A stretch of DNA of 64,000 nt from Nocardia carnea (GTDB lineage Bacteria; Actinomycetota; Actinomycetes; Mycobacteriales; Mycobacteriaceae). A program made the translations under genes and the position numbers. Positions 2,541-58,649 of the stretch are shown piece by piece. Location of the stretch: positions 1 to 64,000 of the forward strand of contig NZ_JARWPM010000445.1 in NCBI RefSeq assembly GCF_029869215.1, written 5' to 3'. The notes under the pieces are model-generated. The model did not search any database. It saw only the letters and a list, made by a program, of their open reading frames with translations, and had not been told where the DNA came from. Within the stretch, counting starts at the first letter, position 1. Each line of letters begins with the position of its first letter.

Positions 2541-2597
2541 TTGACACCGGCAACGACGAGTGAGAATATGATTCTTGATTTGGAGAATCGCACTCTC
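2541..2597 (+). promoter_or_regulatory. Promoter with tandem 15-bp operators (site pair A)
   Basis: Two copies of the window-wide palindrome lie here: GAGAATATGATTCTT at 2562-2576 and GAGAATCGCACTCTC at 2583-2597, centres 21 bp apart (two helical turns). A TTGACA box at 2541-2546 is a good -35 element, and a -10-like sequence falls inside the first operator. A bound repressor would therefore cover the core promoter. The first gene downstream is the AcuI-type reductase at 2697. The related sites elsewhere are at 14813, 34864, 44583, 45387, 50367 and 57541. Confidence 0.72.
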
Positions 2598-29308: not shown

Positions 29309-29686
29309 TCACCGCTGGTGCACTGCAACCTCCTCGGGTTCCGGATCCGCCGCACCGGGCAGGCGGCCGGCGAGCTGGGCCAGGTCGTAGGACTGGCGTG
29401 CCATCCAGTACCGCAGCACCCCGGTCAGCGAGTACCGCAGGAACAGAGCCGCGCCCACGATGCTCGACGACACCCCGGCCAGGGCGATGATGATCGCGTC
29501 GCGCTGCACCAGCGCGTCGGAGGTGTTGTTGGACATCAGATAGCCGAGCACGATCACCACCGGGCCGAGGATCAGCAGGGCGACGCCGACCCGCAACCAG
29601 AGTCCACCGCGGCCGGCGGCGGGGTCGGGGATTTTCAACTCCGCGAGTTCCTGGACGAAGCGGTCCGCGCGCGTGGATTCGGTCAT
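29309..29686 (-). CDS. Small membrane protein linked to the ABC importer
   Basis: 125 residues with two hydrophobic segments (about 31-52 and 63-85) separated by a short polar loop, an acidic N-terminus and a C-terminal charged tail. No family recognised. ATG 29686 overlaps the LivF stop (ATGA), so it is translated with the importer. It may be a transporter accessory protein; the function is unknown. Confidence 0.65.
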   Translation of the reverse strand: MTESTRADRFVQELAELKIPDPAAGRGGLWLRVGVALLILGPVVIVLGYLMSNNTSDALVQRDAIIIALAGVSSSIVGAALFLRYSLTGVLRYWMARQSYDLAQLAGRLPGAADPEPEEVAVHQR

Positions 29687-30390
29687 GACGAAGTTCCTAA
29701 ATAGAGAGAGGCCAATTGGTTTCGGAGGCCGAGATCGGGCGGCCCCTGGTGTTCGACCCGGCCGCGCACCAGCACCGCGGCGGTATCGGCGATATCGAGT
29801 ACCGCGGCGGCGAATTGTTCGACGATCAGCACCGCCACACCCTGGCGGGCGATTTCGGCAACCTGTTCGTACAGCCGCTCCACCACCAGTGGCGCCAAGC
29901 CCATGGACAATTCGTCGAGCAGCAGGACGGCCGGATCGGTGGCCAGCCCGCGGGCCAGGGCCAGCATCTGCTGTTCACCCCCGGAGAGCGTGCCCGCGGT
30001 CTGCCCGGCACGCTGGGCCAGGATCGGGAATCGCGCGAACGCGATCTCCTCGATCTGCGCGACCGGCCGGCCGGTGAACGACATCATCAGCAGGTTGTCG
30101 CGCACGGTGAGGTTCGGGAAGATCCCGCGGCCCTCGGGGATTAGGCAGACACCGGCGCGGGCGAGGTCGCGCGGGTCGGCACCGTTGACGGTGCGGCCGC
30201 CGAGCCGTAATTCCCCGTCCACCACCGGATGCACCCCGGCGGCGACCTTCAACGTGGTGGTCTTCCCGGCGCCGTTGGGGCCCAGCAGCGCGACCACCTC
30301 GCCGGCCCGCACACTCAGGTCGACACCGTGCAACACGGTGATCGCGTCGTAGGCGGCCCGGACCCCGGTCAATTCCAGTAGTGCGGTCAC
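29683..30390 (-). CDS. livF: Branched-chain-type ABC transporter ATPase LivF
   Basis: 235-residue ATPase: Walker A GPNGAGKT (37-44), signature LSGGEQQMLALARGLA, Walker B LLLDELSMGLAP and the H-loop region. The MGLAP D-loop is characteristic of the LivF group. GTG 30390 overlaps the LivG stop. With LivG it powers import through the fused permease. Confidence 0.92.
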   Translation of the reverse strand: MTALLELTGVRAAYDAITVLHGVDLSVRAGEVVALLGPNGAGKTTTLKVAAGVHPVVDGELRLGGRTVNGADPRDLARAGVCLIPEGRGIFPNLTVRDNLLMMSFTGRPVAQIEEIAFARFPILAQRAGQTAGTLSGGEQQMLALARGLATDPAVLLLDELSMGLAPLVVERLYEQVAEIARQGVAVLIVEQFAAAVLDIADTAAVLVRGRVEHQGPPDLGLRNQLASLYLGTSS

Positions 30391-31100
30391 GAGGCCCCCA
30401 GATAGGCCGCGAGGACCTGGTCGTTGCGGCGGATCACCTCGGGCGTTCCGCTCGCGATCACCGACCCGAGATCGAGGACGTACACCTGATCGCAAACGCT
30501 CATCACCAGGCCCATATCGTGTTCGACCAGCACCACCGCGGTACCGTCGGCGGCCACCGAGCGCAGCAGTTCGGCGAACCGATCCGTTTCCGCGCTGTCC
30601 TGGCCGGCGGCGGGTTCGTCGAGTAGCAGCAAGGTCGGCCGTACCGCCAGCGCGCGGCCGACTTCGACCAGCCGCGCCAGCCCGGTCGGGAGCGAATCCG
30701 CCAGATCACCGGCGCGTTCGCCGAGCTCGAGCCGGTCGACGATCTCATCGACCACCTGCTCGGCCCGGCGCCGGTGCGGCCCCAGCTCGGCCGCGACCAG
30801 CAAGTTGTCCCGCACCGACAGCCGGCCGAAGAGTTCGAGCCGCTGGAAGGTGCGTGCCATCCCGCGCCGGGCCCGGCGGGCCGGATCGAGCCGGGTAATA
30901 TCCCGGTCCGCCATCCGGACCCGTCCGGCGGCCGGCCGGCGCAACCCGCAGATCACATCGAACAGGGTGCTCTTACCCGCCCCGTTCGGCCCGATCAACC
31001 CGGTGACCTCGCCCGCCTCGGCCCGTAACCCGGCGCCGTCGAGCGCGCGCCGGCCGCCGAAGGTGACGGTGATATCGCTAACGTCCAGCAGCGATGGCAT
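30387..31100 (-). CDS. livG: Branched-chain-type ABC transporter ATPase LivG
   Basis: 237-residue ATPase: Walker A GPNGAGKS, Walker B LLLDEPAAGQDSAET, H-loop VLVEHDMGLVMSVCD. The ABC signature is altered: where LivG has LSxGxQR it reads SLPTGLARLVEVGRA. The 23-bp overlap with the permease gene and 4-bp overlap with livF show a single operon. This importer type carries amino acids, urea or, in actinomycetes, various carboxylic acids. Confidence 0.9.
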   Translation of the reverse strand: MPSLLDVSDITVTFGGRRALDGAGLRAEAGEVTGLIGPNGAGKSTLFDVICGLRRPAAGRVRMADRDITRLDPARRARRGMARTFQRLELFGRLSVRDNLLVAAELGPHRRRAEQVVDEIVDRLELGERAGDLADSLPTGLARLVEVGRALAVRPTLLLLDEPAAGQDSAETDRFAELLRSVAADGTAVVLVEHDMGLVMSVCDQVYVLDLGSVIASGTPEVIRRNDQVLAAYLGAS

Positions 31101-33204
31101 GATCGAGCACCTCCTTGTCGCCCGGCTGCCACGGTCGTTTCACGCCCCACCATTCGACGGGTACGTCGGGTTCGTCCGCGGCCGCGCGCTTTTCCCGGTT
31201 GTTCGCCCATATCCGCACCGCGAAGACCGCGAGTACCGAACCCCAGAAGAAGATCCAGCCGTCGATCACGCCGGTCAGCCGGATCAGCCACAGCAGCACC
31301 GGGATACCGACCATCAGCGCCAGCGTGACCCGGTTGCGGATCGCCGCCTCGAAGTCCTGCCGCATCCGGGCGACCGCGCCGTGGCTCACCACGCCGCCGC
31401 CGAAGGCGATACCGGCCAGCGCCGGCAGCACATGCATCAGGTTCTCGGTGGAGGGGAACAGCACCGGCAGCGCCAGCATCGGCCCGTAGAGCGCGACACC
31501 CACGAACAGGCCGTTGCCCAGCGCCCCGAGGCCGGCGAATACGGCCACCAGGAAGATCGGCAGACCGGCCACGAAGTTGAACTGTTCCGGCGTCACCGAA
31601 CCGATCTGCATGCCGAACAGGGCACCGCCGAGTCCGGCCAGTCCCCCGCTGAGCGCGAACACCGCCACCTTGGCGCGCAACAGATTGCCGCCGAGGGTGG
31701 CGTAGGCGGCTTCGCTGTCGCGCAGGGCGATGAGCCGCCGGCCGAACCGTCCGCGCCGCAATGCCGCGACGCCGAGGGTGGCCAGGGCCAGGCATACCGC
31801 CGCGAAAAGGGTGATGCCCGCGGCGGTGTCCAACCGCAACCCGAACAGGTTGGGTCCGTGCACCTCGACCGACCCCTGGTCGAAGAACTTGATCGTCAGT
31901 CCCGCGATCTCGAAGGACGGCAGGGTGAAGATCCACCGGTCGAGCACCACCGCGAAGGCCGCGGTCCCGAGGGCCAGGTACACACCCGAGAGCCGCAGCG
32001 CGGGCAGCGCGATCAAGGTTCCGGCGAGCGCCGCGATCACCACGGCGGCGAGCAGGCCCCACAGTTCACCGTCCGGTGCCAGATGCCCGTAGGCGATCGC
32101 GCCGATTCCCGCCATACTCAACTGGCACAGCGAGATCTGCCCGGCGTACCCCGACAGCGGTACGAACGACAGCGCGATCACCCCGAACGCGAACATCGGC
32201 CCGTAGGCGATCAGATCGCTTTCGCCGAGCATGGTGGCGACCATCAATCCCAGGATCACGATCACCCCGGCGAAGAACACGGCACCGCCGCGGGACGGGG
32301 TGGGCACCGGACTGAGTTTGCGATCGCGGCCGCGCAACCGCCCGTGCGGGAACAGCAGCAACGCTGCGAACAGCAGCAATGCCGGCGCCGCCAGCCGCAG
32401 GCCGGGCAGGTACTCGTTCTGCGGCAGGTACCCGGTGAGGTAGCTCTCCATCAGGCCCACCACGACCGCGCCGAGGAAGGTCATCGGCAGGCTGCGCAAC
32501 CGGCCGAAGATCGCCGCGGTGTAGGCGCTGACGATCAGCAGTGACAGCGTGGCGGCGTCCAGCGACACCGTGGGCGCGATGAGAATGCCGCCCACCGCGG
32601 CCAATTCGATGCCGAGGATCCAGGCGACCCGGTTCGCGCGTACCGGGTCGGCGCCGGTGAGCCCGGCCAAGGCCCGGTCGTCGACGGTGGCCCGCATCTC
32701 CGCGCCCGTGCGGGTGTTGAACAGCAGCACCCGCAGCGCCACCGCGACCGCGATGGCCACCAGCATGGTCAGCGCCTGATGCCAGGTGACGGTGGCGGCG
32801 CCGAGCCGGATGGGTTCGGCGTCGGCGAAGAAGATGGGTAGCGAGCGGGCCTGGATCGGATTCCAGATCCAGCGGGCGGTAGCAATGAGGCCACTCAGCA
32901 GCGCGACCGTCATCACCAGTTTTTCCGCGTCCCCCAGGCCCTGCACAGCCCGCAGGGCGCGTTCGACGAGCAGGCCCGACAGCGGCGCCAGCACCAGCAG
33001 CACGATCGCCAGCGCGATCGGTACCGGGACTCCCCAGCCGGCGGTGAGCTGCCAGTAGGAGAAGGCCGCCATCATCCCGGCCGCGCCGTGCGCGAAGTTG
33101 AAGATTCCGGTGGTCGTATGGGTGAGCACCAGACCGCTGCCGATCACGGCGTAGACGGCGGCGGTGCTCAGCCCGACGATCCCGAAGGCGAGGAATTGGT
33201 CCAT
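31078..33204 (-). CDS. Fused LivH-LivM permease
   Basis: 708-residue membrane protein. Residues 1-290 form a LivH-type permease (FNFAHGAAGMMAAF, DRALAGLTGADPVRANRVAW) and about 310-620 a LivM-type permease (SGYAGQISLCQLSMAGIGA, LRDSEAAYATLGGNLLRAKV). In most bacteria these are two genes. The last ~90 residues add two more hydrophobic segments and a polar tail. It would form the whole membrane channel with LivF and LivG. The substrate-binding protein gene lies 5 bp upstream. Confidence 0.88.
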   Translation of the reverse strand: MDQFLAFGIVGLSTAAVYAVIGSGLVLTHTTTGIFNFAHGAAGMMAAFSYWQLTAGWGVPVPIALAIVLLVLAPLSGLLVERALRAVQGLGDAEKLVMTVALLSGLIATARWIWNPIQARSLPIFFADAEPIRLGAATVTWHQALTMLVAIAVAVALRVLLFNTRTGAEMRATVDDRALAGLTGADPVRANRVAWILGIELAAVGGILIAPTVSLDAATLSLLIVSAYTAAIFGRLRSLPMTFLGAVVVGLMESYLTGYLPQNEYLPGLRLAAPALLLFAALLLFPHGRLRGRDRKLSPVPTPSRGGAVFFAGVIVILGLMVATMLGESDLIAYGPMFAFGVIALSFVPLSGYAGQISLCQLSMAGIGAIAYGHLAPDGELWGLLAAVVIAALAGTLIALPALRLSGVYLALGTAAFAVVLDRWIFTLPSFEIAGLTIKFFDQGSVEVHGPNLFGLRLDTAAGITLFAAVCLALATLGVAALRRGRFGRRLIALRDSEAAYATLGGNLLRAKVAVFALSGGLAGLGGALFGMQIGSVTPEQFNFVAGLPIFLVAVFAGLGALGNGLFVGVALYGPMLALPVLFPSTENLMHVLPALAGIAFGGGVVSHGAVARMRQDFEAAIRNRVTLALMVGIPVLLWLIRLTGVIDGWIFFWGSVLAVFAVRIWANNREKRAAADEPDVPVEWWGVKRPWQPGDKEVLDHAIAAGR

Positions 33205-33209
33205 ATCGG

Positions 33210-34583
33210 TTACTTGACGTCCGCCATGGTTTTGCCGACATCCGCCAGCGTCAGCGGTTCACCGTAGTTCCCGGTGTACCGGTAGGGCGGGGTTCCGCAG
33301 CGGAACAGGCCGTCGTTCGCGCCGAAATCGGCTACTTTCCAGCCTTCGGCCGTGGCCTGCATGACGTTGAAGCAGGTCGGGGCCCGGTCCTTCACGGACA
33401 TATCGTTCGGGCTGTGCAAACCGCCGCCGGTCCAGGTGGTTTCCCGCTGCGCCGTTTCCACCAGGCAGGTCCGGGTGAGTTCGGAACCGCAGCCACTCGC
33501 GGCCTTCGCGAAGAGCAGCCAGGCCGAAAACGCGCGGATCGCGGGCAGGCTGATCACCGCGTCGGGCGCGTACTTCTCGTAGAGAGCCTGTAACTGCTGC
33601 ATGGCCGGCGATTGATCGGCCAGTTGCGGCGGCACCACACCGCCGAGATCCACCAGATTGTTCTGGAAGGTGGCCGAGCGGCCGAGCAGTTCGAGGTAAT
33701 CGTCGCGGAAGGCGTTGTTGTTGGGGTCGATCCAGTCCAGCTTGTAATCCATCGAGGTCAGCTTCTCCTCGAGTTTGGCCAGCGGCGCGTCCTCGCCGTA
33801 CCAGATCAGCCCGCGCACGCCGCTGTTCTTGATCGCCTGCGCGTACGGCGTCCAGTCGGTGACGCCACCCACCGGGTACAGCTCGTTGTAGATCACCTTG
33901 GCGCCCATGGCGTTCAGCGATTCGACGGCCTTGTCGCCGAGGACCTTGGTCACCGGGGAATCGCCGTTGACGATGCCGACCGCGGCCGCAGACTGCGGAT
34001 AGGCCTCCTTGGTGAGCCACTGCCGGAACCCGTTGTAGGGGTCGTAGTGGGCGTAGGTGCTCTGCGAGGCGATCACCTGCAGGTCGGTGCCGAGGTTGGG
34101 CTGCTGGGAGACCTGGGCGGGAAAGTCCGGCAGGGTGCATTCGAGGCGTTCCTTCGCCCCGAGCCCGTCCAGGCCCGCGCCACCGCCGACCAGCGCGAAA
34201 TCGGTACGGCAGGCTTCCACCATCTTCTGCCGCACGGCCATCACCTTCGAATCGTGAGTGATGGTGGTGATCGTGCGACCGTTGATTCCGCCGGCCGCGT
34301 TGCACCAGGAGGTGAAGACCTTCGCGGCGTCGACGAATTCGGGGTTCTTGGAGTAGCCGACATCGCTGAAGACGCCGACGGTGATCTCACTGTCGGTGAC
34401 GCCCTGGGTGGGGGCGCCGGCGGCGTCACCGTCCTGGCAGACCCCGGTGAGGTCGCCGAAATCGGCGACCACGGTGTCGCCGGGGGAGGTATCGCCGGTT
34501 TCGCTGCCACTGCGGCCGGAGCAGCCGGCCGTGGCCAGTAATGCCAGGGCGAGCAGGGCGGCGGCGGTTCGCTTCGGTCTCAC
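33210..34583 (-). CDS. ABC transporter substrate-binding lipoprotein (Liv type)
   Basis: 457-residue periplasmic-binding-protein type I. The start GTG 34583 has AAAGGA seven bases upstream and gives a short Arg/Lys N-terminus, a hydrophobic stretch and the lipid-acceptor Cys21 (LLATAGC). The mature part has a Leu/Ile/Val-BP fold (DSEITVGVFSDVG, AAGGINGRTITTI, AVGIVNGDSP). Several extra cysteines suggest disulfides outside the cell. It captures the substrate for the importer. Its promoter region shares the 34.6-34.9 kb intergenic space with the Rieske operon. Confidence 0.88.
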   Translation of the reverse strand: MRPKRTAAALLALALLATAGCSGRSGSETGDTSPGDTVVADFGDLTGVCQDGDAAGAPTQGVTDSEITVGVFSDVGYSKNPEFVDAAKVFTSWCNAAGGINGRTITTITHDSKVMAVRQKMVEACRTDFALVGGGAGLDGLGAKERLECTLPDFPAQVSQQPNLGTDLQVIASQSTYAHYDPYNGFRQWLTKEAYPQSAAAVGIVNGDSPVTKVLGDKAVESLNAMGAKVIYNELYPVGGVTDWTPYAQAIKNSGVRGLIWYGEDAPLAKLEEKLTSMDYKLDWIDPNNNAFRDDYLELLGRSATFQNNLVDLGGVVPPQLADQSPAMQQLQALYEKYAPDAVISLPAIRAFSAWLLFAKAASGCGSELTRTCLVETAQRETTWTGGGLHSPNDMSVKDRAPTCFNVMQATAEGWKVADFGANDGLFRCGTPPYRYTGNYGEPLTLADVGKTMADVK

Positions 34584-34740: not shown

Positions 34741-34863
34741 GTTTTCTGGGTACACCTCGGAAACAAGCGCCACACCCACCGCAGTCCGGGTTGGCGACGA
34801 TCTCCCCGGGCCGGCCCCGCCACCTGTCGGTACATCGTCGCGTTGACTATCCGGCCGCCTCAT

Positions 34864-34899
34864 GGAAATCTGTTATCCGAAAGCGAGAATAGCATTCTC
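34864..34899. promoter_or_regulatory. Operator before the Rieske operon (site pair C)
   Basis: GAGAATAGCATTCTC (34885-34899) is a perfect copy of the palindrome. GGAAATCTGTTATCC (34864-34878) is a weaker copy exactly 21 bp upstream. The perfect site ends 16 bp before the ATG at 34916, directly in front of the GAGAGGAGG ribosome binding site, so TAGCAT in its centre could serve as -10 only with a very short leader. The leader resembles that of the ACAD at 14870 almost base for base. Confidence 0.75.
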
Positions 34900-34915: not shown

Positions 34916-35446
34916 ATGCGAGTACCACCCCTGCCCGCGGACCAGTGGGACGAGGAGGTCGACGACGCGTTGCGGGTGATGCTGCCGCGCCGGATGCGCA
35001 ATCCGGAGCAGGCGAGCAACGCCCTGTCGACACTCGTCCGCCATCCGGCGCTGACCAAGGCGTTCCTCACGCTGAACGTCCACCTGCTGTTCCGGTCGTC
35101 GCTACCGGCCCGGCTGCGCGAACTCGCCATCCTGCGCGTCGCTCACCTGCGCGACTGCGTCTACGAGTGGAACCACCACCGCGAAGCCGCGCTGGCCGAG
35201 GGGATCACCGAAGCGGAGATCGCCGCCGTGACCCGCGGCGAGGCGGCCGAGCCGGTCGAGCAGCTGGTCCTGCACGCCGTCGACGAACTCGGCGAGAAGT
35301 CGAACCTGTCCGATGCCACCTGGGACGGACTGTGTGAGCACCTCGACGAACACCAGCGGATGGATCTGATCTTCACCATCGGCACCTACAACACGCTTGC
35401 CGCGGCCTTCAACACCTTCGGCATCCGTTCCGAGTACGAGAGGTAA
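34916..35446 (+). CDS. Carboxymuconolactone decarboxylase-like (AhpD-fold) protein
   Basis: 176-residue protein of the CMD/AhpD family: LPARLRELAILRVAHLRDCVYEW, HHREAALAEGITEAEIAAV. AhpD enzymes have a CxxC; here only one cysteine is visible near that place (RDCVYEWNHH), so peroxidase activity is doubtful and a decarboxylase-like or unknown role is more likely. First gene of the seven-gene operon behind operator pair C, with a strong GAGAGGAGG. Confidence 0.82.
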   Translation: MRVPPLPADQWDEEVDDALRVMLPRRMRNPEQASNALSTLVRHPALTKAFLTLNVHLLFRSSLPARLRELAILRVAHLRDCVYEWNHHREAALAEGITEAEIAAVTRGEAAEPVEQLVLHAVDELGEKSNLSDATWDGLCEHLDEHQRMDLIFTIGTYNTLAAAFNTFGIRSEYER

Positions 35447-35450
35447 TCCC

Positions 35451-36713
35451 TTGGCACACTTCAACAAACCAGCGGCGGGTAGCTGGACCGAACACTACCC
35501 GGATCTGGGCACCGACCCGATCGACTACAGCGATTCCATCGACCCCCAGTTCTACGAGGACGAGCGCAACGCCATCTTCAAGAAGACCTGGCTCAACGTG
35601 GGCCGGGTGGAGCGGCTGCCGCGTAAGGGCAGCTACTTCACCAAGGAACTCTCCTGCGCGGGGACCTCGCTGATCATCGTCCGGGGTAACGACGATCAGA
35701 TCCACGCCTACCACAATGTCTGCCGCCACCGCGGGAACAAGCTGGTGTGGGACGATTTCCCCAACGAGGAGACCTCCGGCTTCTGCAAACAGTTCACCTG
35801 CAAATACCACGCCTGGCGCTACAGCCTCGAGGGCGAACTGACCTTCGTCCAGCAGGAGAAGGAATTCTTCGGCCTGGACAAGGCCGACTACGGCCTCAAG
35901 GACGTGCGTTGCGAGGTGTGGGAGGGGTTCATCTTCGTCAACCTCGACCCCGACGCCGAACCGCTGACCACCTTCCTCGGCCCGATGATCAAGGGTCTCG
36001 AGGGTTATCCGTTCCACGAGATGACCGAGGTGTTCAGCTACCGCGCCGAGGTCGGCAGTAACTGGAAGCTGTTCATCGACGCCTTCGCCGAGTTCTATCA
36101 CGCGCCGATCCTGCATATGAAGCAGGCGGTCAAGGACGAAGCGGACAAACTGGCCGGCTACGGCTACGAAGCCCTGCACTACGAACTGCAGCCCCCGCAT
36201 TCGATGATCTCGTCCTGGGGCGGAATGGCCCCGCCCAAGGACCTGAACATGGTCAAGCCGATCGAGCGCGTCCTGCGCAGCGGCCTGTTCGGCCCCTGGG
36301 ACCGGCCCGATATCGAGGGCCTCGACCCGCTGCCCGTGGGCATCAATCCCGCCGGTCACCGCGCCTGGGGCGTGGACGAATTCGAGATCTGGCCCAACTT
36401 CTCGCTGTTGTTCTGGGCACCGGGCTGGTACCTCACCTACCACTACTGGCCCACCGCGGTGGACAAGCACATCTTCGAGGCCAATCTGTACTTCGTGCCG
36501 GCGAAGACCGCGCGGGAGCGGCTGGCCCAGGAACTGGCCGGCGTGACCTTCAAGGAGTACGCGCTGCAGGACGCGAACACCCTCGAGGCCACCCAGACGA
36601 TGATCGCGACCCGCACCGTCACCGATTTCCCGCTCAACGATCAGGAAATCCTGCTCCGCCACCTGCACAAGACCGCGCAGAAGAAAGTCGAGGAATACCG
36701 CAATGGCAACTGA
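35451..36713 (+). CDS. Rieske non-heme iron oxygenase, alpha subunit
   Basis: 420-residue ring-hydroxylating-type oxygenase. The [2Fe-2S] Rieske cluster ligands are Cys91/His93 (NVCRHRGNKL) and Cys117/His120 (CKYHAW). The catalytic domain has the mononuclear iron motif IDAFAEFYHAPILH (His217, His222). It should hydroxylate the pathway substrate with O2 and electrons from a reductase. No reductase is in the operon, but a KshB-like one behind the same operator is at 57591. The start is TTG 35451 with AGAGG seven bases upstream; no ATG or GTG fits the N-terminus. Possible roles include steroid or terpenoid hydroxylation. Confidence 0.9.
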   Translation: MAHFNKPAAGSWTEHYPDLGTDPIDYSDSIDPQFYEDERNAIFKKTWLNVGRVERLPRKGSYFTKELSCAGTSLIIVRGNDDQIHAYHNVCRHRGNKLVWDDFPNEETSGFCKQFTCKYHAWRYSLEGELTFVQQEKEFFGLDKADYGLKDVRCEVWEGFIFVNLDPDAEPLTTFLGPMIKGLEGYPFHEMTEVFSYRAEVGSNWKLFIDAFAEFYHAPILHMKQAVKDEADKLAGYGYEALHYELQPPHSMISSWGGMAPPKDLNMVKPIERVLRSGLFGPWDRPDIEGLDPLPVGINPAGHRAWGVDEFEIWPNFSLLFWAPGWYLTYHYWPTAVDKHIFEANLYFVPAKTARERLAQELAGVTFKEYALQDANTLEATQTMIATRTVTDFPLNDQEILLRHLHKTAQKKVEEYRNGN

Positions 36714-37044
36714 GGAAACCAAGGCACTGCCCGCCGAATTCGCCGATCTGGCCCGGTTTTCCGACTGGATCCTGCCCACCGAACCCGAGCGGTACGCGAA
36801 ACGGCTGGCCTCGACCATGCCGGAGATGCAGGATTTCTACGACGCGGGGATGGCCCGGCTCGAGGACGCCATCGCCTACTGCGACAAATTCCCGCTCGAC
36901 GATCTGCCGGACGAGGCGCGTAATCTGTTCCATCTGCTGCAGTCGCTGGTGATGGCCTCGTTCCCGGTGGAGGTCTGGAAGCAGCCCAGAGTGCCCGACA
37001 GCGGCGCGGCCTACCTGGACATCGTGCGCGAACCGGTGGTGTAG
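36703..37044 (+). CDS. Small protein of unknown function with the Rieske oxygenase
   Basis: 113-residue, mostly helical, acidic protein with no recognised domain. The ATG overlaps the end of the oxygenase gene by 11 bp, and its stop is two bases before the amidohydrolase start, so it is translated with them. It is too small for a standard ring-hydroxylase beta subunit and does not resemble a ferredoxin (one cysteine). It may be a stabilising partner of the oxygenase; this is a guess. Confidence 0.7.
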   Translation: MATEETKALPAEFADLARFSDWILPTEPERYAKRLASTMPEMQDFYDAGMARLEDAIAYCDKFPLDDLPDEARNLFHLLQSLVMASFPVEVWKQPRVPDSGAAYLDIVREPVV

Positions 37045-37046
37045 CC

Positions 37047-38261
37047 GTGCTGACACTACGGGCCGCCGGGTTGCTCGATGTGGATTCCGGCGAAATCGTC
37101 CGGCCCGGCATCCTGCGGATCGACGGGGATCGGATCGTCGGCGTCGGCGGCGAACCGGAGGGCGAGATCATCGAGCTCGGTGATCTCGTCCTGTTGCCCG
37201 GTCTGATGGATATGGAGGTCAACCTCCTGATGGGCGGGCGGGGCGAAACCGGGCTGTCCTCCTCGGTGCAGGACGACCCGCCGCTGCGGATGCTGCGCGC
37301 GGTCGGTAATGCCCGGCGCACCCTGCGCGCCGGGTTCACCACCGTGCGCAACCTCGGGCTGTTCGTCAAAACCGGTGGTTACCTGCTGGATGTGGCGCTC
37401 GGTAAGGCGATCGATGCCGGCTGGATCGACGGTCCACGGATCGTCCCGGCCGGCCACGCGATCACTCCCACCGGCGGGCATCTCGACCCCACCATGTTCT
37501 CCGCCTTCGCACCCGACGTACTGAAGCTGACCCTCGAAGAGGGGATCGCCAACGGTGTCGACGAAGTGCGCAAGGCGGTGCGATACCAGATCAAACACGG
37601 TGCCCAGCTGATCAAGGTCTGCGTCTCCGGTGGCGTCATGTCGCTGACGGGAGCCCCCGGCGCACAACACTATTCGACCGAGGAACTGCGGGCGATCGTC
37701 GACGAGGCACACCGGCGGGGCCTGCGGGTGGCCGCCCACACCCATGGGGCCGAAGCGGTGAAGGAGGCGGTCGGGGCCGGGATCGACTGTATCGAACACG
37801 GTTTCCTGATCGACGACGAAGCCATCGACCTCATGGTGCGGGCAGGGACCTATATGGTGCCGACCACGCGCCTGGCCGACGCCATGGATGTCTCCAAGGC
37901 GGCACCGGAACTCCAGGCCAAGGCGGCCGAGATGTTCCCGCGGGCGCGGACCTCGGTGAAGGCCGCGTTCGACGCGGGCGTGAAGATCGCCGTCGGTACC
38001 GACGCACCGGCGATCCCGCACGGCCGCAATGCCGACGAACTGGTGGCCCTGGTCGAGCGGGGTCTCGACCCGCTGTCGGTGCTGCGGGCGGCGACGGTCG
38101 TCGCGGCCGAGCTCATCCAGGTCACCGACCGTGGCCGGCTCGCCGAGGGCCTGCTCGCGGATGTGATCGGGGTACCCGGCGATCCCCTGGCCGATATCAC
38201 CGTCACCCAGCAGGTGCGGTTCGTGATGAAAGGCGGAAAGGTCTATGGCGGCAATCGATGA
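37047..38261 (+). CDS. Amidohydrolase-superfamily protein with altered HxH motif
   Basis: 404-residue TIM-barrel amidohydrolase of the imidazolonepropionase-like group: N-terminal beta-sandwich, LLPGLMD, then barrel strands, and the C-terminal GLLADVIGVPGDPLADI. The usual first metal motif PGxIDxHxH reads PGLMDMEVN, so both histidines are replaced (Glu, Asn). The later ligands are still present: Lys in LIKVCVSGG, His in AAHTHG, His in IEHGF and Asp in VGTDAPAIPHG. A mononuclear centre or changed chemistry is likely. GTG start. It might hydrolyse a lactone or amide or open a ring after oxygenation; the substrate is unknown. Confidence 0.85.
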   Translation: MLTLRAAGLLDVDSGEIVRPGILRIDGDRIVGVGGEPEGEIIELGDLVLLPGLMDMEVNLLMGGRGETGLSSSVQDDPPLRMLRAVGNARRTLRAGFTTVRNLGLFVKTGGYLLDVALGKAIDAGWIDGPRIVPAGHAITPTGGHLDPTMFSAFAPDVLKLTLEEGIANGVDEVRKAVRYQIKHGAQLIKVCVSGGVMSLTGAPGAQHYSTEELRAIVDEAHRRGLRVAAHTHGAEAVKEAVGAGIDCIEHGFLIDDEAIDLMVRAGTYMVPTTRLADAMDVSKAAPELQAKAAEMFPRARTSVKAAFDAGVKIAVGTDAPAIPHGRNADELVALVERGLDPLSVLRAATVVAAELIQVTDRGRLAEGLLADVIGVPGDPLADITVTQQVRFVMKGGKVYGGNR

Positions 38262-38661
38262 CCTGATCGAGATCCAGCAGCTGCTGGCCCGCTACGCGGT
38301 GACCATCACCAAGGGCGATATCGAGGGCCTGATCGGGGTGTTCACCCCCGACGGCACCTACAGCGCCTTCGGTGACACCTACACCCTCGACGTGTTCCCC
38401 GAACTCGTCGACGCCGCACCGAAAGGCCTGTTCCTCACCGGAACTCCGCTGATCGAACTGGACGGCGATACCGGCACCGGCACCCAGCCGCTGTGCTTCG
38501 TCGAGCATGCCAGTCACGATATGCGGATCGGCTACTACACCGATACCTACCGGCGCACCGACAAGGGCTGGCGGCTGGCCACCCGGGCCATGACCTTCAT
38601 CCGCCGCAGCGGTGTGCACGATTCCGGTATCCCGCACGCCTTCGAGCGGCCGGCGGTATGA
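38245..38661 (+). CDS. SnoaL-like (NTF2-fold) protein
   Basis: 138-residue cone-shaped alpha+beta protein of the SnoaL/NTF2-like group (IEIQQLLARYAVTITKGDIEGL, FTPDGTYSAFGD). Relatives include ring-forming and dehydrating enzymes as well as accessory proteins. It overlaps the amidohydrolase by 17 bp and the next ACAD by 4 bp. A similar gene at 47397 follows another unit of this cluster. Function is not assignable from sequence alone. Confidence 0.78.
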   Translation: MAAIDDLIEIQQLLARYAVTITKGDIEGLIGVFTPDGTYSAFGDTYTLDVFPELVDAAPKGLFLTGTPLIELDGDTGTGTQPLCFVEHASHDMRIGYYTDTYRRTDKGWRLATRAMTFIRRSGVHDSGIPHAFERPAV

Positions 38662-39761
38662 ACTCGTCCGATATGGGGGTCGAGGAGTTCCGGTCGCGGG
38701 TGCGTGACTGGCTCGACGCGAACGATCTCGCCCCCGGACCCGAACCCGGTTTCGACGCGCAGGTCGCACAGCTGGGCCGGGTCCGGCGGGCACTGTTCGA
38801 GGCGGGCTGGATGCGCTACGGCTGGCCGGAGTCCGTCGGCGGGCTGGGCGGACCGGCGCTGTTGCGGGCGGTGCTCGGCGAGGAGGTCGCCACCCGCGGC
38901 CTCGCCGAACCGGGCATCTACTCGATGGTCGAAGTTCTGGCCCCGACCATGATCGCCTACGCCCGCCCGGAGCTGGCCGCCGCGATGGTGCCGCGGCTGC
39001 TGGACGGTAGCGAGCAGTGGTGCCAGGGCTTCTCCGAACCGGGATCCGGCTCGGACCTGGCCTCCCTGCGCACCCGAGCCGAACAACGCGATGGGCAGTG
39101 GGTGATCAACGGGCAGAAGGTGTGGACCAGCCTCGCGCAGTTCGCCGCCCGCTGTGTCCTGCTGACCCGTACCGGCCCCGGCCACGACGGGATCACCGCG
39201 TTCTTCGTGGATATGGACACCCCGGGGATCACCGTGCGCCCGCTGCGCACCATGCACGGTGTCGATGAATTCGCCGAGGTCTACTTCGACGATGTCGTGG
39301 TGGACGAATCCCGGATGCTGGGCCGGCCGGGCGACGGCTGGCGGGTCGCGATGGATCTGCTGCCCTATGAACGCTCCACCTGTTTCTGGCACCGGATCGC
39401 GTATCTGTTCACCCGCCTCGACCGCGTGCTGGACCAGACCGCCGACGCCGCCGACGCCGAGCTCGGAGCCGCCTACCTGGCCCTGCATACGATCCGCTGC
39501 CGGTCCCGGGCCACCCAGCGGCGGCTCGCCGGCGGCGCCATCCTGGGCCCGGACACGTCGATCGACAAAGTGCTGCTGGCCACCGCCGAACAGCAACTCT
39601 TCGATACCGCCCGCGACCTGCTACCCGGCCAGATCGAACTCACCGATTCCGAATGGCGCCCGGAATTCCTGTATTCCCGGGCGGCGACCATCTACGGCGG
39701 CACCGCCGAGATCCAGCGCAATATCATTGCCCGCCGCCTGCTCGACCTGGGAAAGGAGTGA
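38658..39761 (+). CDS. Acyl-CoA dehydrogenase, alpha-type subunit
   Basis: 367-residue ACAD with GFSEPGSGSDLASLRTRAE, the C-terminal IYGGTAEIQRNIIARRLL and a helix-G glutamate (LLPYERSTCF) in the place of the isovaleryl-type base. Together with the next gene it looks like an alpha/beta pair. ATGA overlap with the SnoaL gene and GTGA overlap with the beta-type gene. Confidence 0.87.
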   Translation: MNSSDMGVEEFRSRVRDWLDANDLAPGPEPGFDAQVAQLGRVRRALFEAGWMRYGWPESVGGLGGPALLRAVLGEEVATRGLAEPGIYSMVEVLAPTMIAYARPELAAAMVPRLLDGSEQWCQGFSEPGSGSDLASLRTRAEQRDGQWVINGQKVWTSLAQFAARCVLLTRTGPGHDGITAFFVDMDTPGITVRPLRTMHGVDEFAEVYFDDVVVDESRMLGRPGDGWRVAMDLLPYERSTCFWHRIAYLFTRLDRVLDQTADAADAELGAAYLALHTIRCRSRATQRRLAGGAILGPDTSIDKVLLATAEQQLFDTARDLLPGQIELTDSEWRPEFLYSRAATIYGGTAEIQRNIIARRLLDLGKE

Positions 39762-40684
39762 GTAGCACCGTGGACGCCGCCGAACTGACCCTGCTCACCG
39801 ATACGCTGCGCAAGACGATGGCCACGGCCACCGGCGCCGAACTCTATCCCGCACTGTGCGACCTCGGCTGGCACGATCTGCTCACCGGCGCCGACACCGC
39901 CGATATCGCGGTCTCCTCGGTCTTCCGCCTGCTCGGCGAGACGGGCTCCCACGCCCCACTGCTCAACGATGTGCTGGCACACGCCACGGGCCGGCCGTTC
40001 GGCGAACCGGTGCCGCTGCCGTTCAGCGGTGGCCGCTGGCTGCTCTGGTCCGAAACCGCCGATGCCGCGCCGAGCACAGACCCGCGGAACGAGAGCCCGC
40101 CGCGACAGCAGCGCAACGACCACGTCGTTCTTCTCGATCCCGAACTTCCACTGCACGCCGCCGGTGAGCCCACCGAACCACTCGCGACCCTCGCGGCTCC
40201 GCTCGCTGCGGGCCGGCGTGCGCTGGGCTGGTGGCTCACCGGCTCCGCGCGCGCCATGCTCGCGCTCGCCCGTCGGCACGCGCTGGAACGAGAGCAGTTC
40301 GGTAAACCCGTGGCGGGTTTCCAGGCCATCCGGCACCGGCTGGCCGAAACCCTGGTCGCCATCGAGGGCGCGGAGGCCGCACTCACGCTGGAGCCGGCCG
40401 ATGCGCACCATCCGGCCCACCCCGCTTCGGCCGTACCGCAGGACTACGACGCCCTCGCCGCTTCACTCGCCAAGGCCGCCGCCGGGCGCGCGGCGCTCGT
40501 GACCGCGCGCCACTGCCAGCAGGTGCTGGGCGGTATCGGATTCACCGCCGAACACGAATTCCACCGCCACTATCGGCGGGTGCTGGTGCTGGACGGATTA
40601 CTCGGCAGCGCCCGGGATCTCACCCGCGAAGCCGGTGCGACGCTGCGCGCACTCGGCTATGCGCCCCGCCTCGCACAGCTGTAA
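39758..40684 (+). CDS. Acyl-CoA dehydrogenase, beta-type (non-catalytic) subunit
   Basis: 308-residue shortened ACAD: RHALEREQFGKPVAGFQAIRH and CQQVLGGIGFTAEHEFHRHY identify the fold, but the base-bearing helix reads WWLTGSARAMLALA and the C-terminus lacks GTxE. Probably the partner of the ACAD before it. GTG 39758 gives a GTGA overlap but sits right on the AGGAG; GTG 39770 would leave normal spacing. Last gene of the operon from 34916. Confidence 0.82.
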   Translation: MSSTVDAAELTLLTDTLRKTMATATGAELYPALCDLGWHDLLTGADTADIAVSSVFRLLGETGSHAPLLNDVLAHATGRPFGEPVPLPFSGGRWLLWSETADAAPSTDPRNESPPRQQRNDHVVLLDPELPLHAAGEPTEPLATLAAPLAAGRRALGWWLTGSARAMLALARRHALEREQFGKPVAGFQAIRHRLAETLVAIEGAEAALTLEPADAHHPAHPASAVPQDYDALAASLAKAAAGRAALVTARHCQQVLGGIGFTAEHEFHRHYRRVLVLDGLLGSARDLTREAGATLRALGYAPRLAQL

Positions 40685-43545: not shown

Positions 43546-44544
43546 TCAATGCCGGGCGGCGAGGTACTCCCGGGCCACTACGGCGCGGTGTTCGGCCGCG
43601 CCGCCGAAGAGCAGTTCCCCGGCCTTGGCCCGTTTGATCGCGAACTGCAGGTCGTTTTCCCAGGTGAACCCCATGGCACCGAACAGTTGCACGCCGTGCC
43701 GGAAAACCACCGATTGACATTCCCCCGCCGACGCCTTGGCCATCGCCGCCGCCGACCGGCGGCGCGGATCGTCTTCCGCCAGGCACAGCGCCGCGAAATA
43801 TCCCAGCGCCCGCGCCCGTTCGATGGCCAGATGCATATCGGCGGCCTTGTGCTGCACCGCCTGGAACGCGCCGATCGCGGTGCCGAACTGCTGCCGGGTG
43901 CGCACATGGTCGAGGACGAGATCGAGCACGCGCTGGCAGGCGCCGACCGTGGTCAGCGCCAGGCCGGTCAGGGCCAGTTGCCGGGCGCGCTCGGGATCGG
44001 CGGCGGTGCGGTCGGCATCGGTGACCCGCACGTTGTCGAACGTGACCTCCGCGATGTGCAGCACCGGATCGAAAACCTCGATCCGCCGGGCGGTGGCGGC
44101 CTCCGCGGGAACCACGAAGACCCCGGCGGCGGTGACCACTGCCAGGCGATCACCACGGTCGCCGTCGAGGACGTGGCCCGCGGTACCGCGCAGCAGCCAG
44201 CCCGCGCCGTCGCGGACCGCGGTCACCCCCTCGAACACCGCGGCGCCGGGTGCTTCCGGGGCGCCGGAAGCACCTGCCAGCGGCGCGAATTGGGTCATCG
44301 TGGCAAGATAGGGCGTCGGGTCGGTGGCCCGGCCCAGGCCCTCGAGCACGATCCCGAGCTCCACGGCCGCTTCCGGTTCCACGAGTTCGGTCCAGCCGAG
44401 CTCGACGTAGGTCTTCCAGAGCCGGCCCGGATCCGCACCGGAGTCCACGATCTCCCGGATCACCGTGGCGGGGCATTCCTTGGCGGTGACTTCGCGGACC
44501 GTATCGCGGAGCAGCCGTTGATCGGCATCGAACTCGAAGAGCAT
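43546..44544 (-). CDS. Acyl-CoA dehydrogenase, beta-type subunit without adjacent partner
   Basis: 332-residue ACAD-like protein: VRTRQQFGTAIGAFQAVQHK and GVQLFGAMGFTWENDLQFAI show the fold, but no base glutamate is seen in helix G (LALTGLALTTVG) and the end reads LLFGGAAEHR. This is the non-catalytic type, yet no alpha-type ACAD gene is next to it. Its partner must be elsewhere, or it acts alone. ATG 44544 has AGGAGGAG upstream. It is read away from operator pair D. Confidence 0.82.
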   Translation of the reverse strand: MLFEFDADQRLLRDTVREVTAKECPATVIREIVDSGADPGRLWKTYVELGWTELVEPEAAVELGIVLEGLGRATDPTPYLATMTQFAPLAGASGAPEAPGAAVFEGVTAVRDGAGWLLRGTAGHVLDGDRGDRLAVVTAAGVFVVPAEAATARRIEVFDPVLHIAEVTFDNVRVTDADRTAADPERARQLALTGLALTTVGACQRVLDLVLDHVRTRQQFGTAIGAFQAVQHKAADMHLAIERARALGYFAALCLAEDDPRRRSAAAMAKASAGECQSVVFRHGVQLFGAMGFTWENDLQFAIKRAKAGELLFGGAAEHRAVVAREYLAARH

Positions 44545-44582: not shown

Positions 44583-44619
44583 GAGAATAGCATTCTCTTG
44601 AGATGAAATTAATAGTCTC
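44583..44619. promoter_or_regulatory. Operators between ACAD and TetR (site pair D)
   Basis: GAGAATAGCATTCTC (44583-44597) is a perfect copy of the palindrome. GAAATTAATAGTCTC (44605-44619) is a weaker copy with its centre 22 bp away. They lie 39 bp upstream of the minus-strand ACAD and about 110 bp upstream of the plus-strand TetR gene, so they could control both. TAGCAT in the centre of the first site can serve as a -10 element. Confidence 0.75.
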
Positions 44620-44727
44620 CTCAACGGTGCGAACACCGGACGTGCCTGCCCGGACATGGGACGTTCTCCGGTACAGTGCACCCATGTTCTCCACATATGG
44701 GATCGATGGGATCGGACGGGCCAGCCG

Positions 44728-45378
44728 GTGACCAGCCCAAGCGAAGAACCGGCCTGGAAGCAGCGCGCCGTAGAGCGCTCCATCCGCACCGCGAAGCTGC
44801 GCGCCGAACAACGCGTGCAGCGCTTTCTCGATGCCGCCCAGGCGATCATCACCGAAAAGGGCACCACGGATTTCACGGTCCAAGAGGTCGTGGACCGGTC
44901 CAAACAGTCGCTGCGCAGCTTCTACCTGCAGTTCGACGGTAAACACGAACTACTGCTGGCACTGTTCGAAGACGCCCTGAGCCGGACGGCCGATCAGATC
45001 CGGGCCGCCGTCGCGGGTAAGGACAACGCCCTGGACCGGCTGCAGCTCGCCGTGGAACTGCTCTACGAACTGTGCCGCCCGGACCCCACCGCGCAGCGTC
45101 CGCTGTTCACCGATTTCGCGCCGCAGCTGCTGGTCAGCCATCCCGCACAGGTGAAAGTCGCGCATACGCCGCTGGTCGTACTGTTCACGGAACTGATGAT
45201 CGACGCCGACAAGGACGACCTGCTGCGCGAGGAAGTGAATCCGCGCCGGATGGCCGCCATGGTGATGCAGACGGTGATGTTCACGGCCCAGTCCAACGGG
45301 GGAATCGACGACGAGACCACGCACCCGATCTCGGCCGAGGAGATCTGGGAGTTCTGCGCGCGCGGATTCGCCCGCTGA
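44728..45378 (+). CDS. TetR-family transcriptional regulator
   Basis: 216-residue TetR protein. The HTH is RVQRFLDAAQAIITEKGTTD then TVQEVVDRSKQSLRSFYLQF, with KHELLLALFEDAL after it. About 20 basic residues precede the HTH. GTG 44728 was chosen; upstream codons are not conserved-looking. It is next to operator pair D and only 54 bp before the thioesterase, which has its own copy of the palindrome. It is the second candidate regulator of the window-wide palindrome. Confidence 0.88.
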   Translation: MTSPSEEPAWKQRAVERSIRTAKLRAEQRVQRFLDAAQAIITEKGTTDFTVQEVVDRSKQSLRSFYLQFDGKHELLLALFEDALSRTADQIRAAVAGKDNALDRLQLAVELLYELCRPDPTAQRPLFTDFAPQLLVSHPAQVKVAHTPLVVLFTELMIDADKDDLLREEVNPRRMAAMVMQTVMFTAQSNGGIDDETTHPISAEEIWEFCARGFAR

Positions 45379-54043: not shown

Positions 54044-54044
54044 T

Positions 54045-57490: not shown

Positions 57491-57540
57491 CTGCCGCCCC
57501 CGATCCGATTGCACGTCATCGCTGTTCCTATCCGAATTTG

Positions 57541-57577
57541 AGAATACTATTCTCGCCTGGATAGAATCTTAATACCA
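57541..57577. promoter_or_regulatory. Operators between ligase and Rieske reductase (site pair F)
   Basis: GAGAATACTATTCTC (57541-57555) is a perfect copy of the palindrome; TAGAATCTTAATACC (57563-57577) is a weaker second copy with its centre 22 bp further. TACTAT in the middle of the first is a good -10. The ligase start is about 50 bp one way and the reductase ATG (57591) 36 bp the other, so both are likely controlled. Confidence 0.78.
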
Positions 57578-57590
57578 GAAGGAGGCGACC

Positions 57591-58649
57591 ATGGCGAGAC
57601 CACCACTGTTCCGGCGCGCGAAGGTGATCCGGATCGTCAAGGAAACACCCGATACCCGCACCTTCGTACTGGAACCGGAAGACGGGCCGTTCTCCTATCG
57701 GGCCGGCCAGTTCTGCACCTTCAAGGTCACCGTCGACGGCAAACCGCTGTTCCGGTCGTACTCGATGTCCAGCGCGCCGGAGACCGACAGCGAGTTCATG
57801 ACCACGGTCAAACGGGTGCCCGGCGGCGCGGTGTCGAACTGGATGCACGACAATCTCGGCGAAGGCGACGAGGTCGAGCTGACACTGCCCACCGGCCGCT
57901 TCTGCCTGCGCGAGGGCGATGTGCCGGTACTCGGTTTCTCCGGCGGTAGCGGGATCACCCCGATCATCTCGCTGGCCAAGAGCACCCTGGCGAGCACCGA
58001 CCGCACGGTCCGGCTGCTGTGCGCCGACCGCGACCGGACCTCGGCCATTTTCGAGGCCGCGCTGGACGAGCTGGTGGCGAAATATCCGGACCGGTTGACC
58101 GTCGTCCGCCACCGCGACGACGAGCACGGGTACGTGGACGCGGCGAAAGTCCGCGAATTCGTCGGCGAGCATACGGCCGGCGATGCCTATATCTGCGGCC
58201 CCGAACCGTTCATGGAACTGGTGGAGAACGCGCTACCCGGGCCGGGGCGGATCTTCTCGGAACGTTTCGGCGGCACTCCCGCCGCCCCGGCACCACCCGT
58301 CCCGGCTCCCGCAGCGGAACCCGCTGTCACCGGACCGGTTTCGGCCCCCACGCCACCCGCACCCGCGGCCACCGAAGAGGGCACCGTGACGATCTTCCTC
58401 AACCGGAAGAAGAAATCGGTCCCCCGCCGCGACGGCGAAACCCTCCTGGAGAGCGCCCGCCGCGCCGGCCTGACTCCCCCGTTCTCCTGCGAATCCGGGA
58501 ACTGCGCCACCTGCATGGCCAAACTCACCGAGGGCAAGGCCACCATGCGCATCAACGACGCCCTCACCGACGACGACCTCGAGGACGGCTACATCCTCAC
58601 CTGCCAAGCCGTCCCCGACACCCCGTCGGTGACGGTGCGTTACGAGTGA
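57591..58649 (+). CDS. KshB-like Rieske-oxygenase reductase (FAD, NAD, [2Fe-2S])
   Basis: 352-residue ferredoxin-NAD(P) reductase with three parts: an FAD domain (AGQFCTFKV, RSYSMSS), an NAD domain (GFSGGSGITPIIS, AYICGPEPFMELVENAL) and, after a ~45-residue Pro/Ala linker, a plant-type ferredoxin with cluster ligands Cys-x4-Cys-x2-Cys (SCESGNCATC) and a distal Cys (ILTCQAVP). This is the domain order of KshB, the reductase of 3-ketosteroid 9-alpha-hydroxylase. It is the only reductase in the window able to serve the Rieske oxygenase at 35451, and both sit behind the same palindrome. Strong AGGAGG before the ATG. Confidence 0.9.
   Translation: MARPPLFRRAKVIRIVKETPDTRTFVLEPEDGPFSYRAGQFCTFKVTVDGKPLFRSYSMSSAPETDSEFMTTVKRVPGGAVSNWMHDNLGEGDEVELTLPTGRFCLREGDVPVLGFSGGSGITPIISLAKSTLASTDRTVRLLCADRDRTSAIFEAALDELVAKYPDRLTVVRHRDDEHGYVDAAKVREFVGEHTAGDAYICGPEPFMELVENALPGPGRIFSERFGGTPAAPAPPVPAPAAEPAVTGPVSAPTPPAPAATEEGTVTIFLNRKKKSVPRRDGETLLESARRAGLTPPFSCESGNCATCMAKLTEGKATMRINDALTDDDLEDGYILTCQAVPDTPSVTVRYE

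What the first reader, a model, noticed from the sequence alone, without database searches (positions are those of the whole stretch)
34916..40684. Seven-gene Rieske operon with no obvious known counterpart
CMD-like protein, Rieske oxygenase, a 113-residue unknown, a HxH-less amidohydrolase, a SnoaL-like protein and an ACAD alpha/beta pair are tightly coupled. The set does not match the kshA, hsa, pobA-type or phthalate operons I know. It suggests oxygenation, then ring opening or rearrangement, then beta-oxidation of the product.
Basis: inference. Interest (0 to 1): 0.65.

Follow-up and report, generated by a model that had tools for sequence, protein, structure and literature searches.

The report
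Rieske operon with undescribed partner protein
A seven-gene set, probably for breaking down a ring compound that is not yet known, is kept in the same order across soil actinobacteria, shares a likely DNA switch with neighbouring genes, and contains a small unnamed protein that travels with one branch of Rieske oxygenases in very different bacteria.

Summary
All seven genes are there, tightly packed; 63 of the 80 closest loci (Nocardia, mycobacteria, Rhodococcus) keep all seven in order; Frankia and Actinomadura keep part. No curated family claims the set, and no described operon of this make-up turned up in the open papers searched. (1) The 113-residue unknown (D113) has no Pfam, NCBIfam or clear fold match; 128 of 132 copies lie on the strand of a Rieske alpha gene, nearly always next to it, also in Sphingomonads, Cupriavidus, Acinetobacter and Variovorax; six complete oxygenases outside this branch lack it. 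(2) The amidohydrolase has E57-x-N59 instead of HxH in 79 of 79 rows, with K190, H231, H251 and D319 kept: possibly a one-metal hydrolase. (3) A palindrome, GAGAATNNNATTCTC, lies upstream of the operon (at most one mismatch in 77 of 79 relatives) and before a TetR gene, a FadD/ACAD block and a PaaE/GbcB-type reductase in the window: a likely regulon and electron donor. A second cluster with two more oxygenase-D113 pairs lies 10-36 kb away in at least eight relatives, far away in others. Substrate and chemistry are inferred, not shown.

The parts
34885..34899 (.). palindromic operator GAGAATNNNATTCTC upstream of the operon
   Evidence: exact match; invariant in 10 aligned upstream regions; at most one mismatch in 77 of 79 relatives
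34843..34880 (+). conserved promoter-like stretch (TTGACT ... TGTTAT) before the operator
   Evidence: partly conserved columns, sequence; read by eye, the sigma-70 consensus scan did not report it
34916..35446 (+). CMD/AhpD-like protein (176 aa)
   Evidence: PF02627 E 5e-14
35451..36713 (+). Rieske oxygenase alpha subunit (420 aa)
   Evidence: PF00355, PF00848; C91 H93 C117 H120, E214, H217 H222 D374 kept in 82 of 82 rows
36703..37044 (+). D113: small helical protein without known family, beside the oxygenase
   Evidence: no Pfam/NCBIfam match; AF2 mean pLDDT 88.4, six helices; 128 of 132 copies with an RO on the same strand, 123 within 250 bp
37047..38261 (+). amidohydrolase with E57-x-N59 in place of HxH (404 aa)
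   Evidence: PF01979; E57, N59, K190, H231, H251, D319 in 79 of 79 rows
38245..38661 (+). SnoaL_4 (NTF2-like) protein (138 aa)
   Evidence: PF13577 E 1e-14; PDB relative 2chc Rv3472
38658..39761 (+). acyl-CoA dehydrogenase, alpha type
   Evidence: three ACAD domains; best PDB match 4x28_A
39770..40684 (+). acyl-CoA dehydrogenase, beta type (C-terminal domain recognised only)
   Evidence: PF00441, PF08028; best PDB match 4m9a_A, further matches 6wy8_A and 4x28_D
44583..44597 (.). operator copy between the ACAD (43546-44544, -) and TetR genes
   Evidence: exact; exact site before the TetR gene in 62 of 65 loci that hold it
44656..45378 (+). TetR-type regulator (ATG start; GTG at 44728 also possible)
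   Evidence: PF00440; paralogue 56% identical beside another exact operator on C100
50367..50381 (.). operator copy between thiolase (49171-50319, -) and SDR (50420-51184, +)
   Evidence: exact
57540..57554 (.). operator copy between the FadD-type ligase gene and the reductase gene
   Evidence: exact
57591..58649 (+). PaaE/GbcB-type reductase (FAD, NAD, C-terminal 2Fe-2S), likely electron donor
   Evidence: PF00970, PF00175, PF00111; PaaE and GbcB models best, both below cut-off; 44% identical to a protein encoded inside cluster II of L128
56003..57490 (-). FadD-type acyl-CoA ligase, first gene of an ACAD beta/alpha/ECH block (53276-57490)
   Evidence: PF00501; best curated models below cut-off
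29683..34583 (-). branched-chain-amino-acid-type ABC importer divergent from the operon (Liv names given by eye)
   Evidence: translations; permease fusion hits UrtB/UrtC models below cut-off; shared by 26-27 loci

Best explanation
The seven genes are the core operon of a TetR-type catabolic regulon for a ring-containing carboxylic acid, probably taken up by the divergent ABC importer and handled as a CoA ester. ROA is the catalytic Rieske oxygenase and D113 its dedicated small helical partner (subunit or assembly/stability factor); electrons most likely come from the PaaE/GbcB-type reductase that shares the operator. AHY, a one-metal (beta-site) amidohydrolase, then hydrolyses the oxygenated ring product (lactam, lactone or enol ester); SNO and CMD support isomerisation or peroxide removal; the ACAD alpha/beta pair starts oxidation of the opened product. 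Shown here: gene content, synteny, D113-oxygenase linkage, ligand replacement, shared palindrome. Inferred: physical partnership, metal content, electron donor, regulator binding, order of steps, substrate.
For: Synteny 63 of 80, order kept in all 80. D113 with an RO alpha on the same strand in 128 of 132 copies, 123 within 250 bp; 21 of these pairs come from loci other than clusters I and II (L120-L122, L124, L132, L134-L143 with three in L138, L145-L148). Asked from the oxygenase side: the first 15 plasmid RO hits each have a D113 next to the RO (14 fetched, H22 by the coordinates of H20), rows 16, 17 and 19 do not. On the tree the D113 label needs 2 changes against a shuffled mean of 6.6, 0 of 500 as low. 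Catalytic residues intact. E-x-N and the other ligands invariant; precedents: E. coli NagA, QxN with one metal at the beta site (PMC3880350, passages), molinate hydrolase, one alpha-site His changed to Asn and mononuclear (PMC4407906, passages). Operator: 4 exact in the window, 9 within two mismatches against 0.63 expected; 9 exact in the genome, reversed-pattern control 0; 77 of 79 relatives; 160 of 162 exact sites within 300 bp of a called gene start. Reductase behind an operator, and a 44% relative inside cluster II of L128. ACAD alpha best matched by 4x28_A, beta also by 4x28_D and 6wy8_A.
Against: Four D113 copies have no RO on their strand (L070, L144, L133, L151); in L070 the operon begins with D113 right after the operator. 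Most of the 128 pairs are one orthologous operon and most loci were chosen by D113, so they are not independent. The border of the branch is thin: best-domain scores 201 (L148, with D113) and 198 (L149, without), both 29.9% identical to ROA. One origin of the D113-bearing branch in only 40% of bootstrap trees. Linkage does not prove contact; the ROA-D113 distance correlation (r 0.94) is expected for linked genes. AHY and SNO are missing from cluster I in L022, L023 and L041. The own-genome cluster II has no operator within one mismatch and lies on another contig; in G503 and G513 the two clusters are 0.5 and 3.7 Mb apart. For ACAD beta the best PDB match is 4m9a_A, not a pair member known to me. 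No call shows a substrate or regulator binding.
Confidence: 0.6

Rival explanations
1. D113 is not an oxygenase partner but a separate pathway protein (ligand carrier, regulator or chaperone of another step) that happens to be kept next to the oxygenase.
For: D113 without an RO on its strand in L070, L144, L133 and L151; in L070 it heads the operon (operator at 8923, D113 at 9001).
Against: Adjacency in otherwise unlike gene settings, and no D113 beside six complete RO genes outside the branch.
Confidence: 0.2
2. SNO is the true beta-like subunit of the oxygenase, and D113 an assembly factor.
For: SnoaL_4 proteins accompany RO-D113 in L137, L138 (two), L139 and L145, with cupin genes between in the last two; SNO has a weak match to the AndAd small subunit (E 7e-4).
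Against: Cluster II has RO-D113 pairs without a SnoaL gene among its called genes (L009); three loci keep ROA-D113 and lack SNO; no PF00866 match at E<=1.
Confidence: 0.25
3. The regulon is a variant of the known steroid (cholesterol, bile acid or HIP) catabolic system.
For: FadD3-like ligase, ACAD pairs and an oxygenase reductase in the window; KstD-like and PtlE-like genes behind exact operators elsewhere in the genome.
Against: None of these passes a steroid equivalog cut-off; the operator differs from KstR and KstR2 motifs as I recall them (not looked up).
Confidence: 0.3
4. The substrate is an N-heterocycle or lactam-forming aromatic, and AHY cleaves a C-N bond.
For: Some D113-type RO loci sit beside amide hydrolases: acetamidase/formamidase in L137 and L138, asparaginase in L139 and L145. 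In Acinetobacter piscicola p38 genes annotated like L137's RO, styrene-type monooxygenase and ferredoxin, with matching gene-number spacing, are listed as up-regulated by skatole (PMC11434297, passages with tables).
Against: ACADs, CoA transferase and thiolases point to degradation of a carbon skeleton as CoA ester; other D113-RO loci have no amide hydrolase in the annotated stretch (e.g. L136, L142, L148); the link between p38 gene1684 and L137 rests on annotation and order, not on sequence.
Confidence: 0.2

Closest known systems
Two-component Rieske monooxygenases of the CntA/GbcA type
   Same: alpha subunit with Rieske and catalytic domains and a Glu bridge; CntA is the best PDB hit, GbcA the best NCBIfam hit; a PaaE/GbcB-type reductase lies behind the same operator
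   Different: only 120.5 bits against the 670 GbcA cut-off; the CntA match covers residues 32-233 only; accompanied by D113
ska (skatole) cluster of Rhodococcus and gene1684-1690 of Acinetobacter piscicola p38
   Same: the Acinetobacter plasmid locus L137 has RO, D113, SnoaL_4, styrene-type monooxygenase, flavin reductase, SDR, ferredoxin in a row, like the p38 gene list (PMC11434297, passages); ska has a three-component ring-hydroxylating system (PMC13101512, passages)
   Different: no ACAD pair or HxH-less amidohydrolase in L137; whether ska or p38 hold a D113 was not tested
Xaa-Pro dipeptidase / Cc2672-type amidohydrolases (3mtw, 9kov)
   Same: full-length match, K/H/H/D ligands kept
   Different: HxH replaced by ExN in 79 of 79 rows; 364 bits against the 500 cut-off of NF051886
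ChsE4-ChsE5 (4x28) and Tcur3481/Tcur3483 (6wy8, 6wy9) acyl-CoA dehydrogenase pairs
   Same: alpha hits 4x28_A and 6wy9_A, beta hits 4x28_D and 6wy8_A; the names ChsE4-ChsE5 and their steroid role are recalled
   Different: low similarity; beta matches other ACADs better (4m9a_A); complex not tested

Membership tests
Rieske non-heme iron oxygenase alpha subunit | Rieske CxH...CxxH and catalytic 2-His-1-Asp | tested here: met
   82 of 82 rows; PF00355 and PF00848
alpha3beta3 ring-hydroxylating dioxygenase | PF00866 beta subunit in the operon | tested here: not met
   none of the seven proteins matches PF00866 at E<=1
GbcA glycine betaine monooxygenase | NF058607 score above cut-off | tested here: not met
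   120.5 against 670 bits
3-ketosteroid 9alpha-hydroxylase (KshAB) | steroid substrate and KshA-type alpha | tested here: inconclusive
   no KshA or KshB model among the hits; whether the library holds one was not checked; no substrate test
Amidohydrolase superfamily | Amidohydro_1 domain with K, H, H, D ligands | tested here: met
   PF01979 135.6 bits; ligands in 79 of 79 rows
Binuclear amidohydrolases | HxH after strand 1 | tested here: not met
   E57-x-N59 in 79 of 79 rows
Beta-mononuclear amidohydrolases (NagA type) | one metal, at the beta site | not testable with these tools
   needs metal analysis or a structure
Xaa-Pro dipeptidase NF051886 | score above cut-off | tested here: not met
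   364.4 against 500 bits
Heteromeric acyl-CoA dehydrogenase pair | adjacent full alpha and partial beta genes | tested here: met
Heteromeric acyl-CoA dehydrogenase pair | the two proteins form one complex | not testable with these tools
   needs co-purification
TetR regulon | conserved palindrome before regulator and target genes | tested here: met
TetR regulon | regulator binds the palindrome | not testable with these tools
   needs gel shift or footprint

The most novel reading that the evidence does not exclude
D113 is the small, all-helical, obligatory partner of a separate class of Rieske oxygenases (alpha plus D113 instead of alpha alone or alpha plus beta) spread over Actinomycetota and Pseudomonadota, and in this operon that oxygenase works with a one-metal E-x-N amidohydrolase that opens the oxygenated ring.
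Probability: 0.35. Interest if true: 0.75.

Novelty: new variant of a known kind. Interest (0 to 1): 0.6.

Why it matters
Rieske oxygenases are classed by their components. A recurring small partner that the libraries used here do not model would add a component type, and could explain failures to express such oxygenases on their own. The operon, its operator and its likely reductase give a testable regulon in culturable actinobacteria, and the invariant loss of HxH offers a clean case for the one-metal question in amidohydrolases.

Tried and rejected
Cupriavidus IndA as a characterised relative: I recalled it as a Rieske enzyme; the review PMC6221969 (passages) describes a two-component oxygenase with flavin reductase, so the idea was dropped. 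IacB (hypothetical, 125 aa, table of PMC11676955, passages) as a D113: by its locus number iacB (A2102) does not adjoin iacC (A2105); not tested by sequence. Also seen as passages only, without use: PMC10989954, PMC9871250, PMC12017989. Known fold for D113: no Foldseek hit at E<=0.001, best VIA Z 5.0 on helical bundles, which for helical proteins says nothing; this does not show a new fold. PDB profile search: best E 0.076. Mirror-tree: uninformative for linked genes. Consensus promoter and terminator scan: nothing above shuffles. The ten literature searches cover open PMC papers only; two asked for the operon's make-up, two for a small oxygenase partner, the rest for indole or skatole clusters and one-metal amidohydrolases.

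Rows dropped or chosen: one search used 79 of 82 AHY, 82 of 88 ROA and 84 of 88 D113 rows (copies L001-L003 and short rows left out). One search left out own-genome copies and sub-loci fetched again in wider form, and by oversight L094 (a further RO-D113 pair). Of 21 plasmid records with a D113, 13 were fetched by that hit. Five 'far' pairs: in L138, L145, L146 and L148 only the best domain was counted and the annotated or called RO gene abuts D113; in L141 the RO is split into two annotated genes. L074, counted as a miss, has only the later genes of the operon on its contig.
Full report
What is there. The seven genes are confirmed at 34916-40684 on the + strand with gaps between -17 and +8 bases. 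Pfam names six; the 113-aa protein, here D113, has no match in Pfam or NCBIfam at E<=1. The window lies in a 7.76 Mb genome; D113 hits at 94-95% identity are Nocardia carnea and N. flavorosea, so the genus is inferred to be Nocardia.

Conservation. A scan with D113 found 301 stretches encoding a relative; the best 80 were kept. In 63 of 80 all seven genes stand in the same order, and in all 80 the genes present do. The complete sets are in Nocardia, mycobacteria and Rhodococcus; the Frankia (L027, L075) and Actinomadura (L065, L070) loci are incomplete. In the genus, 62 of 148 genomes hold D113; 33 of these 62 have three copies, 16 one, 13 two, four or five. In a spread over the phylum 15 of 396 had a match, the own genome included, two of them (G174, G260) weak and partial at E 8e-4.

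A second cluster. The own genome has a paralogous cluster on C279 (L009): SDR, CMD, ROA, D113, TauD-type dioxygenase, ROA, D113, AHY, aldehyde dehydrogenase. Read from the coordinates, it lies about 10-36 kb from cluster I in G517, G461, G535, G446, G416, G479, G392 and G074; 66-100 kb away in G430, G516, G438, G506 and G521; 0.5 Mb in G503, over a megabase in G498 and G513; on another contig in others, the own genome included. In G535 and G461 cluster I lacks AHY and SNO while cluster II in the same stretch has AHY. This fits one shared pathway but does not prove it.

D113. AlphaFold2 gives a six-helix protein, mean pLDDT 88.4, without a trustworthy structural relative or PDB profile match. 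A plasmid search found relatives in 21 records: 13 Sphingomonads, the rest Cupriavidus, Acinetobacter, Rhodococcus, Burkholderia, Paroceanicella and Variovorax. Eleven such relatives scanned against Pfam gave no family. In the loci then held, 128 of 132 D113 copies have a Rieske alpha gene on the same strand, 123 within 250 bp, 125 with the oxygenase upstream. Most of these are one orthologous operon; 21 pairs come from other settings. Exceptions are L070, L144 and the lindane-plasmid loci L133 and L151. Seven RO hits have no D113: three plasmid ones, the two other oxygenases of the own genome, a second one in L131, and a shortened one in L151. Asked from the oxygenase side, the first 15 plasmid RO hits have D113 beside them (H22 judged by the coordinates of H20), rows 16, 17 and 19 do not; row 18 and most lower rows were not fetched. 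The border is thin: best-domain score 201 with D113 (L148), 198 without (L149). On a tree of 48 oxygenases the D113 label needs 2 changes (shuffled mean 6.6, 0 of 500 as low); one origin is neither shown nor excluded, 40% of bootstrap trees have it. Across both phyla only W22, R30, R34 and L75 (numbering of the Acinetobacter protein) are invariant in 29 sequences.

Oxygenase and electrons. Rieske and iron ligands and the bridging Glu are kept in 82 of 82 rows; their roles are assigned from recalled RO motifs. Best solved relative is carnitine monooxygenase, over residues 32-233. No reductase is in the operon. A reductase with FAD, NAD and C-terminal 2Fe-2S domains lies at 57591-58649, best matched by PaaE and GbcB models below cut-off, behind an exact operator; the own genome holds other reductase-like matches, the next at 40% identity. 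A 44% identical protein is encoded within cluster II of G392. That it serves ROA is inferred.

Amidohydrolase. E57 and N59 replace HxH in 79 of 79 rows; K190, H231, H251, D319 are unchanged. E. coli NagA has QxN and one metal at the beta site (PMC3880350, passages); molinate hydrolase has one alpha-site His changed to Asn and is mononuclear (PMC4407906, passages). So a working one-metal hydrolase is likelier than a dead one. Metal content is untested.

Other parts. SNO is SnoaL_4; SnoaL_4 proteins accompany RO-D113 in L137, L138 (two), L139 and L145. ACAD alpha is best matched by 4x28_A; ACAD beta by 4m9a_A, with 6wy8_A and 4x28_D further down; 4x28 and 6wy8 are recalled as steroid side-chain enzymes.

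Regulon. Aligning ten upstream regions showed an invariant palindrome GAGAATNNNATTCTC. In the window four exact copies lie before the operon, the TetR gene, a thiolase/SDR pair and a FadD/reductase pair; nine sites within two mismatches against 0.63 expected. In the genome there are nine exact sites, none for the reversed pattern; about 0.04 expected from base composition. In relatives 70 exact and 7 one-mismatch sites of 79 with upstream DNA; L027 has only a two-mismatch site, L074 none. Of 162 exact sites in the window and 80 loci 160 lie within 300 bp of a called gene start, and 62 of 65 loci with the TetR gene have one before it. Other genomic sites lie by a 56% identical TetR and an ACAD (C100), a KstD-like gene (C73) and an operon with SDR, RO and PtlE-like genes (C369); these may belong to paralogous regulators. 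The own-genome cluster II has no site within one mismatch.

Literature. Ten text searches of open papers found no operon of this make-up; two of them asked for it directly. The nearest functional lead is the up-regulation by skatole in Acinetobacter piscicola p38 of gene1684 (RO alpha), gene1687 and gene1690 (PMC11434297, passages with tables), whose annotations and numbering fit the order in L137; identity was not checked.

Verdict. Ordinary parts, unusual combination, one undescribed element. Substrate and order of steps remain inference.

Noticed in passing
L133:6529-8351 and L151:1886-6951 (lindane-degradation plasmids): A D113 relative lies two genes after linC in IS6100-bounded segments, with a shortened Rieske alpha gene nearby in L151; linC may stem from an oxygenase operon.
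   Followed up: partly
L032:3044-9315: Rhodococcus sp. 105337 carries two nearly identical ROA-D113 pairs (100% and 99%) separated by a P450-like gene (by eye) and a small gene.
   Followed up: no
L070:8923-12865: Actinomadura barringtoniae has operator, D113, AHY, SNO and the ACAD pair but no CMD or ROA in the locus: D113 without its oxygenase.
   Followed up: partly
window 29309-29686 and 21867-22406: Two conserved proteins (125 and 179 aa; 26 and 24 loci) without a Pfam match at E<=0.001.
   Followed up: no
window 2562-2576 and 2583-2597: Two one-mismatch operator copies 6 bases apart, about 100 bases before a + strand gene at 2697.
   Followed up: no
L139:8365-9056 and L145:6645-7354: Two cupin genes stand between the RO-D113 pair and a SnoaL_4 gene in Paroceanicella and Azospirillum.
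   Followed up: no
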